In this document: piece after piece, positions 43,576 to 48,205 of the stretch
Layout of the letters: the number at the start of each line of letters is the position of its first letter
Numbering within the stretch: the stretch's first letter is position 1
Translations under genes and position numbers: made by a program
Source of the DNA: Methylotenera sp.
GTDB lineage: Bacteria; Pseudomonadota; Gammaproteobacteria; Burkholderiales; Methylophilaceae
DNA length: 64,000 nucleotides
Reading direction: 5' to 3'
NCBI RefSeq assembly: GCF_030653755.1
Contig: NZ_JAURYU010000017.1
Location: 1 to 64,000, forward strand
Notes under the pieces: model-generated
Told to the model about the DNA's origin: nothing
Databases searched by the model: none
What the model saw: only the letters and a program-made list of their open reading frames with translations

Positions 43576-44475
43576 ATGATAAATAACACAGGCCAATCTG
43601 GTTATTTATCTGAATTTAGATACGCCCTGCATTTAGCAGTATGCCTGCCTATAAGCTTCCACTCGCTTATCAACCAACTATTTAAACTAGGCTATACTAG
43701 TCTAATGGATAAAAAAAATGTTGAAAGAATTATCATTGACAGCCTGTTTCTTACTGCGCACAGACCCGAGTCAACTCTGTTAAAACTGGAAGGCGTACGT
43801 GGATACCTGTCACCTTTTAAACTAGCTTACGCAAATCGCGTGCAATTAGTTAATGCATTCAATGTAGATAGTTCAATCCAATCAACAATAGATTTCTTCA
43901 AAACAAGAAACGCTGGTTTAACTTGGGTGGTTACATCTAAAGACATTGACCTAGGTTTACCCGAAAAGCTGGTGATGAATGGATTTTCCCCATGTAGATT
44001 CCATAAAATATCTGGAATGTATCTTGAATGTTCTGATGCCCCTCTGGAAGAAAACCCAGTTATAAAAATTGAAGAAATATTTACTGATGGTAATACAGAA
44101 ATGATTGCCCGTGCGTATGGCTATAACGATATTGATTATCCTAAATACCTCTACAGTGTAACTTCTAATCATGGTGACATTCAAAATCGGCTTTATCAAG
44201 CTTATGTACAGGATAAAAACAATCCCATAGGCTATGGATTTTGTTCCTATATAGAGAATAATTCCATCGCCCTAATGAGAGGTGCTGCTGTGTTGCCAGA
44301 GTATCGAGGGAAAGGCGTCTATAAAGCACTTTTTAGACGGCGACTCGCTGATGCATGTCAAACTGGAATTCAGAGATTCGTGACCCAAGCCGCACGTGAT
44401 ACATCTTACTCAACATGCCTTAGCCTAGGATTCGAGGAAATTTGCCCTTTAGAGCTTTATGAATGGTCTCCGTAA
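43576..44475 (+). CDS. GNAT-family N-acetyltransferase next to the synthetase locus
   Basis: The C-terminal half is a GNAT domain: the acetyl-CoA loop appears as MRGAAVLPEYRGKGVYKALFRRRLADA (R/Q-x-x-G-x-G/A type), followed by FVTQAARDTSYSTCLSLGFEEICPLELYEW. The N-terminal half resembles a second, degenerate GNAT-like lobe. The frame opens at 43576, but an ATG at 43705 removes 43 atypical residues and may be the true start. Its end overlaps the end of the convergent PPTase gene by 19 bp. It might acylate the synthetase product, which is only a guess from position. Confidence 0.75.
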   Translation: MINNTGQSGYLSEFRYALHLAVCLPISFHSLINQLFKLGYTSLMDKKNVERIIIDSLFLTAHRPESTLLKLEGVRGYLSPFKLAYANRVQLVNAFNVDSSIQSTIDFFKTRNAGLTWVVTSKDIDLGLPEKLVMNGFSPCRFHKISGMYLECSDAPLEENPVIKIEEIFTDGNTEMIARAYGYNDIDYPKYLYSVTSNHGDIQNRLYQAYVQDKNNPIGYGFCSYIENNSIALMRGAAVLPEYRGKGVYKALFRRRLADACQTGIQRFVTQAARDTSYSTCLSLGFEEICPLELYEWSP

Positions 44476-45185
44476 TAAATAAAATCTAGCGGCTCTTCAA
44501 TTTCAATGTAGTGCCAATCTCTGCCTTTTGCCGCCACTGCTGCGGAATAGCCATCAGGGGCGTTAATGTATGTTAAACGCCACTCTTTAGTCGCAAGATG
44601 GTTCATTTCATCTTCGCATAAAGCGTCAATGTCGTTTGGGACAGATGAAACAGAAAATGTGTACAAAGGTCGTGAAAACCCAGCACCCAATGCCTTAACA
44701 TATGCCTCCTTCCGCACCCAAATTTCCGAGAAGGCCATTTTCCTTTCAACGCTATTTAATGACAACAAATAAGCAACTTCTGATGGAGAGTACACAAACT
44801 CAGATACTGACTCAGGATCTACGGCCTGCTCCACAGCCTGAATATCTATGCCAACGTCACGACAGCTTGAAACTGCAATCATGGCGATGTTTTTGCTATA
44901 AGACATATTGAAGTTGAGGTCAACTTTGTAGCTAAGCGAAGGTTTGCCGCTCGGACCATAGTTAAAGTCTTGAAATGCCCATTCCTTCCCTATGTAACAA
45001 CTCAGGACTTTACGTAAAGCAGCTCTTGCCCTAATGAATCGTTGCCTTTTATGCAAATCAACGAAGCCGTTTGCCCTAGATATTTCTGAATGTGTTAGCA
45101 AAGAAACATCTGCATTACATCTATTTAGATCGATTGTCCAAATATGAACCTCATCTTTAGATAATATGGGTAACGCCATATTCAA
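44457..45185 (-). CDS. 4'-phosphopantetheinyl transferase, Sfp type
   Basis: 242 residues. Converts apo carrier proteins to the holo form by moving phosphopantetheine from CoA to a serine. Family motifs are intact: GPSGKPSLSYKVDLNFNMSYSKNIAMIAVS, the metal-binding VGIDIQAVE and FSEIWVRKEAYVKALGAGF. Its start overlaps the stop of the A-T-TE synthetase by four bases, so the two are coupled and this enzyme very likely primes that synthetase's carrier domain at Ser561. Confidence 0.93.
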   Translation of the reverse strand: MNMALPILSKDEVHIWTIDLNRCNADVSLLTHSEISRANGFVDLHKRQRFIRARAALRKVLSCYIGKEWAFQDFNYGPSGKPSLSYKVDLNFNMSYSKNIAMIAVSSCRDVGIDIQAVEQAVDPESVSEFVYSPSEVAYLLSLNSVERKMAFSEIWVRKEAYVKALGAGFSRPLYTFSVSSVPNDIDALCEDEMNHLATKEWRLTYINAPDGYSAAVAAKGRDWHYIEIEEPLDFIYYGDHS

Positions 45186-47734: not shown

Positions 47735-47782
47735 TTAAAGTATATTTCCAATGTAAGCATATAGACAGAGAGGCTCGTCTAC

Positions 47783-48205
47783 CTATTTTTTCAAAGCATC
47801 TCGAATTTCACGTAATAAAATAATATCTTCAGCGGTTGGTGCAGGGGCTGCGGCTGGCTCAGCTCTTTTTAGGCGATTCATTTGTTTAACCAACATAAAA
47901 ATCACAAAAGCTAAGATGATAAAGTTAATTACGATCGTTAAAAAATTACCGTAAGCAAGCATTGGCACACCCGCTTGCTTAAGCGCTGCATAAGTGCCTG
48001 TACTACCCTCTGGCACTGCCGCCAAAGCAATAAACATATTACTAAAATCTACATTACCCACTATTTTTCCAATAAGCGGCATAATGATATCGCCCACTAA
48101 AGAATCAACAATCTTTCCAAAAGCAGCGCCAATGATGACACCTACTGCTAAATCCATGACATTGCCTTTTAAGGCAAACTGCTTAAATTCTGACGCGATA
48201 CTCAT
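47783..48205 (-). CDS. mscL: Large-conductance mechanosensitive channel MscL
   Basis: Pressure-relief channel, homopentamer in the inner membrane. The N-terminus ASEFKQFALKGNVMDLAVGVIIGAAFGKIVDSLVGDIIMPLIG covers the amphipathic helix and TM1; TM2 is near NFLTIVINFIILAFVIFMLVKQMN. The ATG at 48205 (with GGAG upstream) gives the standard MSIASEF start and 140 residues; an ATG four codons upstream is less likely. Co-oriented with the synthetase gene downstream of it. Confidence 0.96.
   Translation of the reverse strand: MSIASEFKQFALKGNVMDLAVGVIIGAAFGKIVDSLVGDIIMPLIGKIVGNVDFSNMFIALAAVPEGSTGTYAALKQAGVPMLAYGNFLTIVINFIILAFVIFMLVKQMNRLKRAEPAAAPAPTAEDIILLREIRDALKK

What the first reader, a model, noticed from the sequence alone, without database searches (positions are those of the whole stretch)
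43576..48205. Accessory insertion between corC and lnt carrying a small biosynthetic locus
Seen: the normally continuous corC-lnt-glyQ-glyS backbone is interrupted by about 5.5 kb holding a small exported protein, a GNAT, a PPTase, an A-T-TE synthetase and mscL. The synthetase and PPTase overlap by four bases, so carrier and activating enzyme are made together. Inference: a self-contained pathway for one small molecule, possibly acylated by the GNAT.
Basis: partly seen in the sequence, partly recalled or inferred. Interest (0 to 1): 0.68.

Follow-up and report, generated by a model that had tools for sequence, protein, structure and literature searches.

The report
Inserted three-gene small-molecule synthesis cassette
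A rare three-gene cassette, inserted between two conserved genes of a bacterium, encodes a one-module peptide-synthetase-like enzyme, its activating enzyme and an acetyltransferase-like enzyme, and probably makes one small molecule from an acid that is not a normal amino acid.

Summary
The genes are real, but the insertion is smaller than reported. The small exported protein and mscL are backbone genes: they are neighbours in 17 of 29 other genus loci held. The inserted part is 43426-47782 (4.36 kb): a GNAT, an Sfp-type PPTase and an 850-aa A-T-TE synthetase, in place of a terminator-like hairpin. The same three genes, in the same order, lie elsewhere in one other genome of the genus, G011 (65/50/52% identical for synthetase/PPTase/GNAT). 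The GNAT was found in 2 of 187 family genomes. Catalytic motifs are intact in both synthetases. The adenylation pocket (TFAITSIGAK; TFAVTSIGAK in G011) lacks the Asp that holds an alpha-amino group and has Cys for the A5-motif Pro, so the substrate is probably not an ordinary alpha-amino acid. Best reading: a self-contained NRPS-like cassette. The PPTase arms the carrier, the A domain loads a non-amino (alpha-keto, alpha-hydroxy or similar) acid, the TE releases it, and the GNAT tailors or detoxifies the product. Substrate, product and GNAT role are inferred. It is a rare variant of a known kind.

The parts
43039..43425 (+). exp128, small exported protein; backbone, left border of the insertion
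   Evidence: no Pfam family; present in 7 of 7 fetched junctions without the cassette
43426..47782 (.). inserted stretch
   Evidence: homology to relatives ends at the exp128 stop and resumes at the mscL stop
43457..43497 (+). hairpin after exp128, 12-bp stem
   Evidence: -16.5 kcal/mol, z -3.91
43705..44475 (+). GNAT (ORF open from 43576; start by homology)
   Evidence: PF00583 26.1 bits, cut-off 20.7; 52% identical in G011
44457..45185 (-). Sfp-type 4'-phosphopantetheinyl transferase, 242 aa
   Evidence: PF01648 54.6 bits; Sfp 1qr0 E 5.5e-9
45182..47734 (-). A-T-TE synthetase, 850 aa, TTG start
   Evidence: PF00501, PF13193, PF00550, PF00975; motifs intact
46202..47641 (-). adenylation domain, pocket TFAITSIGAK
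45944..46132 (-). carrier (T) domain, Ser561
45209..45880 (-). thioesterase, Ser691 / Asp718 / His824
47783..48217 (-). mscL; backbone, right border of the insertion
   Evidence: PF01741; neighbour of exp128 in relatives
48291..48320 (-). promoter-like site upstream of mscL, TTGACA-18-TATATT; could also serve the synthetase by read-through
   Evidence: 11 of 12 matches to consensus, but the number of sites in the region is at the chance level

Best explanation
A rare, self-contained NRPS-like cassette for one small molecule. Shown: three intact genes in fixed order and orientation, inserted between exp128 and mscL, and present at another site in a second genome of the genus. Inferred: the PPTase puts phosphopantetheine on Ser561 of the T domain. 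The A domain adenylates a carboxylic acid without an ordinary alpha-amino group (most likely an alpha-keto or alpha-hydroxy acid) and loads it. The TE releases it as a dimer, lactone, ester or amide, because plain hydrolysis would only return the substrate. The convergent GNAT then acylates the product or protects the producer. In this genome synthetase and PPTase are probably read through from mscL, whose terminator was lost.
For: Same three genes, order and orientation in G011 at another locus, while G011's corC-lnt junction is empty. Frames and catalytic motifs kept in both copies at 65% identity. Pocket identical in 9 of 10 positions between the copies, the tenth I/V. No Asp at position 235 and Cys for the A5 Pro, as in domains for non-amino acids described in PMC11253843 (passages). 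Only Sfp-type PPTase found in the genome; a second, longer PPTase in 5 of 52 genus genomes, one of them below the cut-off. No Condensation domain in the genome. Terminator hairpin of relatives absent.
Against: Thr at position 235 is not the hydrophobic or small residue of the known alpha-keto and alpha-hydroxy cases, and McyG shows that an amino acid can be bound without the Asp. Only two copies are known, so co-occurrence of GNAT and synthetase rests on two genomes. GNAT score is modest and its fold could not be modelled. No expression data.
Confidence: 0.6

Rival explanations
1. The A domain activates an alpha-amino acid despite the changed pocket; the product is an amino acid derivative (ester, diketopiperazine or amide) that the GNAT N-acetylates.
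For: McyG binds Phe with Val at the Asp position (PMC11253843, passage). The nearest domains by sequence have amino-acid codes. A GNAT needs an acceptor, most often an amine.
Against: Two changes together, Asp to Thr and A5 Pro to Cys, kept in both copies; Asp is kept in 18 of 19 and 11 of 11 other domains compared (one domain is in both sets).
Confidence: 0.2
2. The GNAT takes the acyl group directly from the carrier and joins it to an amine, as the GNAT-like domain of insect Ebony or the N-acyl amino acid synthases do (both recalled); the TE only edits.
For: GNAT and synthetase are kept together in both known copies and the GNAT is not found without the synthetase in the family.
Against: TE triad intact; GNAT lies on the other strand, not in the synthetase operon; no direct evidence.
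Confidence: 0.12
3. The PPTase is kept mainly to activate the genome's other A-T-TE enzyme (contig C10), and the cassette's own synthetase is secondary.
For: The PPTase is the only Sfp-type one found in the genome; the C10 enzyme is a complete A-T-TE by Pfam.
Against: Synthetase and PPTase overlap and are also together in G011. A shared role is not excluded.
Confidence: 0.05
4. A decaying or silent insertion without present function.
For: Rare (2 of 187 family genomes for the GNAT), no recognised promoter of its own beyond chance.
Against: All three frames open and motifs intact in two copies that differ at 35-50% of residues.
Confidence: 0.03

Closest known systems
Quinone/furanone synthetases (fungal atromentin and polyporic acid synthetases; bacterial RalA, EchA)
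   Same: Three-domain A-T-TE of similar size (HapA1 964 aa, HapA2 925 aa in PMC10316625, passages), no Condensation domain, substrate without alpha-amino group proposed
   Different: First code residue is Val in these alpha-keto acid enzymes, Thr here; no direct sequence comparison was made with them
StsA-type alpha-keto acid adenylation domain (cereulide initiation module)
   Same: Asp235 equivalent lost and the conserved Pro at the position of LgrA P483 replaced (PMC11253843, passages; position by alignment)
   Different: Ile and Met there, Thr and Cys here; A-KR-T there, A-T-TE here
Terminal A-T-TE parts of multimodular NRPSs (cyanobacterial and Mycetohabitans plasmids)
   Same: Same domain order aligned over most of the length; best-ranked row 35.5% identity over 96%
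   Different: The two annotated ones that I opened are ends of longer enzymes; the three extracted keep Asp235
Sfp-type PPTases beside NRPS genes
   Same: PF01648, similarity to Sfp, overlapping with its synthetase
   Different: nothing notable beyond low identity

Membership tests
NRPS-like A-T-TE synthetase | A, T and TE domains in one chain, no Condensation domain | tested here: met
   Pfam matches over cut-off for each domain, none for Condensation
NRPS-like A-T-TE synthetase | catalytic residues intact | tested here: met
   Lys505, Ser561, Ser691, Asp718, His824
Ordinary alpha-amino acid adenylation domain | Asp at position 235 | tested here: not met
   Thr216 aligned to the Asp of Txo1 without gap; Asp in 18 of 19 others
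Alpha-keto acid adenylation domain (StsA type) | hydrophobic residue at position 235 | tested here: not met
   Thr in both copies
Alpha-keto acid adenylation domain (StsA type) | A5-motif Pro replaced | tested here: met
   Cys312 in both copies
Quinone/furanone synthetase | A-T-TE architecture | tested here: met
Quinone/furanone synthetase | Val as first code residue | tested here: not met
   Thr; criterion from PMC10316625 passage
Quinone/furanone synthetase | sequence grouping with RalA or EchA | not tested
   no such sequence was fetched; one is a referred step
Quinone/furanone synthetase | dimerised aryl-pyruvate product | not testable with these tools
   needs biochemistry
Sfp-type PPTase | PF01648 match, about 230-aa chain, similarity to Sfp | tested here: met
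   54.6 bits, 242 aa, Sfp 1qr0 E 5.5e-9
Mobile genetic element | own integrase or transposase, or flanking repeats | tested here: not met
   none among the ORFs read at 38.8-53.1 kb (by eye; Pfam on seven of them); no direct repeat of 9 bp or more between the edges
Carrier-dependent GNAT (Ebony or N-acyl amino acid synthase type) | GNAT uses a carrier-bound acyl donor | not testable with these tools
   no informative model of the GNAT

The most novel reading that the evidence does not exclude
A new minimal pathway type: a one-module A-T-TE with pocket TFA(I/V)TSIGAK loads a non-amino acid by a code not seen in any domain compared here, and its dedicated GNAT takes the acyl group from the carrier to make an amide or ester metabolite in a group of bacteria with few such genes.
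Probability: 0.15. Interest if true: 0.65.

Novelty: new variant of a known kind. Interest (0 to 1): 0.42.

Why it matters
If right, it is a very small complete pathway: one synthetase, its own activating enzyme and one acyltransferase, in a genome where no Condensation domain was found. It is small enough to express whole in E. coli and read out by mass spectrometry, and it would add a pocket type for a non-amino acid to the adenylation specificity code.

Tried and rejected
Two genome-contig scans, with the whole synthetase and with its pocket region, returned no confirmed relative; the tool says records very near the window's own genome may be left out. The GNAT has no match at E <= 1e-5 in 72,556 plasmid records. 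The pocket region has no match other than the window's own at E <= 1e-25 in 399 genomes drawn from the order. At E <= 1e-120 a profile of both synthetases matched 6 of 398 genomes drawn from the phylum: the window's own, and five with matches of 480 bits or less in open frames of 1263 aa or more. G011 was not among the matches, so these samples evidently did not include it. The GNAT hit in G091 (26% identity) stands beside genes that look by eye like denitrification genes; no synthetase is among the ORFs of 150 aa or more in the 19 kb read, so I treated it as an unrelated GNAT. The GNAT hit in G458 (30.7 bits) was not followed up.

Single-sequence folding of the GNAT gave mean pLDDT 35.9 and was not used. 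Foreign composition as proof of recent transfer was rejected: cassette GC is 0.39-0.42 against 0.39-0.48 for eight backbone genes here, and 0.49-0.55 against 0.48-0.56 in G011. Synonymous sites are saturated, so no dN/dS was obtained for the cassette genes. No Rfam family in 42800-48500. Five paper searches gave listings in which I saw no description of this cassette; of the papers I saw only passages of three (PMC11253843, PMC10316625, PMC8399692).

Full report
What is there. The window has miaB, phoH, a psiE-like gene, ybeY, corC and exp128 on the + strand, then a GNAT (+), a PPTase (-), an A-T-TE synthetase (-), mscL (-), and lnt, glyQ, glyS (+) (families for corC, exp128, GNAT, PPTase, synthetase, mscL and lnt, the other names by eye). 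In seven genomes of the same genus whose junction I fetched (G043, G050, G036, G014, G051, G011, G024), corC, exp128, mscL, lnt and glyQ follow each other without the three middle genes. The lnt search matched 50 of 52 genus genomes and gave 30 loci, of which 29 are not the window's own. In 17 of these 29, exp128 and mscL are neighbours, 47-136 bp apart between aligned ends (ten of these distances I worked out by hand from the printed coordinates, because the script's formula fails on that strand). In the other 12, exp128 and/or mscL was not found in the stretch held. None of the 29 shows the synthetase, PPTase or GNAT in that stretch. So exp128 and mscL are backbone, and the insertion holds three genes, 43426-47782.

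The junction. In the seven relatives the spacer between the convergent exp128 and mscL is 62-93 bp between aligned ends (63-94 as printed). The three spacers that I folded (G043, G050, G036) form strong hairpins (-27 to -32 kcal/mol, z -4.8 to -7.4), as a shared terminator would. In the window homology runs to the exp128 stop and resumes at the mscL stop. A new hairpin follows exp128 (z -3.9), but the 66 bases from the end of mscL into the synthetase leader fold no better than shuffles (z 0.15). Read-through from mscL into synthetase and PPTase is therefore likely, but it is an inference; promoter-like sites in the region are no more frequent than chance (12 found, 14.2 expected). I saw no integrase or transposase among the ORFs at 38.8-53.1 kb, the window's two tRNA genes are far away (17.3 and 21.3 kb), and no direct repeat of 9 bp or more joins the edges.

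A second copy. G011, a single-contig genome of the same genus, carries GNAT, PPTase and synthetase in the same order and orientation at another place, beside a DUF2141 gene (PF09912), itself matched in only 4 of 52 genus genomes, and a long ORF that looks by eye like a GGDEF/EAL protein. Its corC-lnt junction has no cassette. Identities are 65% (synthetase), 50% (PPTase) and 52% (GNAT), against 67% for lnt, 70% for exp128, 78% for psiE and 85-94% for mscL, ybeY, corC, miaB and phoH. Composition is close to that of each host. The cassette is thus probably old in both lineages, or was exchanged long ago within the group. The GNAT was found in 2 of 187 family genomes. In one search it matched 3 of 101 relatives, the third (G091) judged unrelated; it matched 2 of 369 genomes of the class, the second (G458) weak and not followed up. 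In 101 relatives the only synthetase match of more than 41% identity besides the window's own is G011 at 66% (best matches listed).

The synthetase. All three domains have intact motifs: TSGSSG, SGD, Lys505, carrier Ser561, TE Ser691, Asp718, His824. The alignment to Txo1 (ungapped through the 235-239 region) with the pocket positions listed in PMC11253843 (passage) gives T216 F217 A220 I259 T284 S286 I309 G317 A318 K505, i.e. TFAITSIGAK; G011 has TFAVTSIGAK. The transfer of GrsA numbering to these columns is mine. Of 19 other domains, 18 have Asp at the first position and 17 have the A5 Pro; this genome's other A-T-TE (L057) lacks both and L010 lacks the Pro. Several of the 19 are close relatives of each other. 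Of 11 further loci, one of them the same domain as in the first set, 11 have Asp and 10 the Pro. PMC11253843 (passages) says that alpha-hydroxy and alpha-keto acid domains lack this Asp and that the alpha-keto domain StsA has Met for a conserved Pro, equivalent to LgrA P483. The alignment (numbering of chain 9be3) puts LgrA P483 in the YGPTE motif, aligned to Cys312 here. So two marks point to a substrate without an ordinary alpha-amino group. Against this, Thr at the first position is not the residue of the described cases, and McyG shows that an amino acid can be bound without the Asp.

The PPTase. The genome search found two PF01648 proteins: one in a 125-aa frame, of AcpS size, and this one. 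In the genus 49 of 52 genomes have a match. A second, longer one (open frame 200 aa or more) occurs in G000, G011, G024, G030 and, below the cut-off, G003. The cassette brings its own carrier activation, which fits a unit able to work after transfer.

The GNAT. PF00583 matches at 26.1 bits (cut-off 20.7); the PDB matches are weak (best E 0.0067, an aminoglycoside acetyltransferase). A convergent gene of its own fits tailoring or self-protection (general knowledge), but no result here decides its role.

The organism. No tool named the organism, and the passages gave no sizes.

Verdict. I rate it a rare variant of the NRPS-like A-T-TE kind, with substrate and product unknown.

Noticed in passing
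L057 8403-11012 (-) (G000:C10, own genome): A second complete A-T-TE enzyme (869 aa) with an unusual pocket (SAMHDARFIK, LAATE in place of YGPTE) and a Cys in the TE nucleophile motif (GLCAGG), next to an AIR-carboxylase-family gene and in a region that looks by eye like a surface polysaccharide cluster.
   Followed up: partly
L058 1-4469 (G021:C124): An A-T-TE reading frame, cut by the contig start, is followed by a PrnB-family gene (PF08933, 382 bits) and an ORF that looks by eye like a kynurenine-formamidase-type cyclase: a possible tryptophan-derived pathway.
   Followed up: partly
L012-L018 (G030, G003, G027, G033, G013, G057, G022): A-domain proteins in open frames of 1176-1360 aa with nearly identical pocket codes (DME[HN]NG type) in six genus genomes and one other genome of the family; from memory they resemble Pls/PosA-type synthetases. 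In G003 a weak second PPTase match lies on the same contig about 2.5 kb away.
   Followed up: no
window 43039-43425: exp128, a small exported protein without Pfam or NCBIfam family, is conserved between corC and mscL in many genomes of the genus.
   Followed up: no
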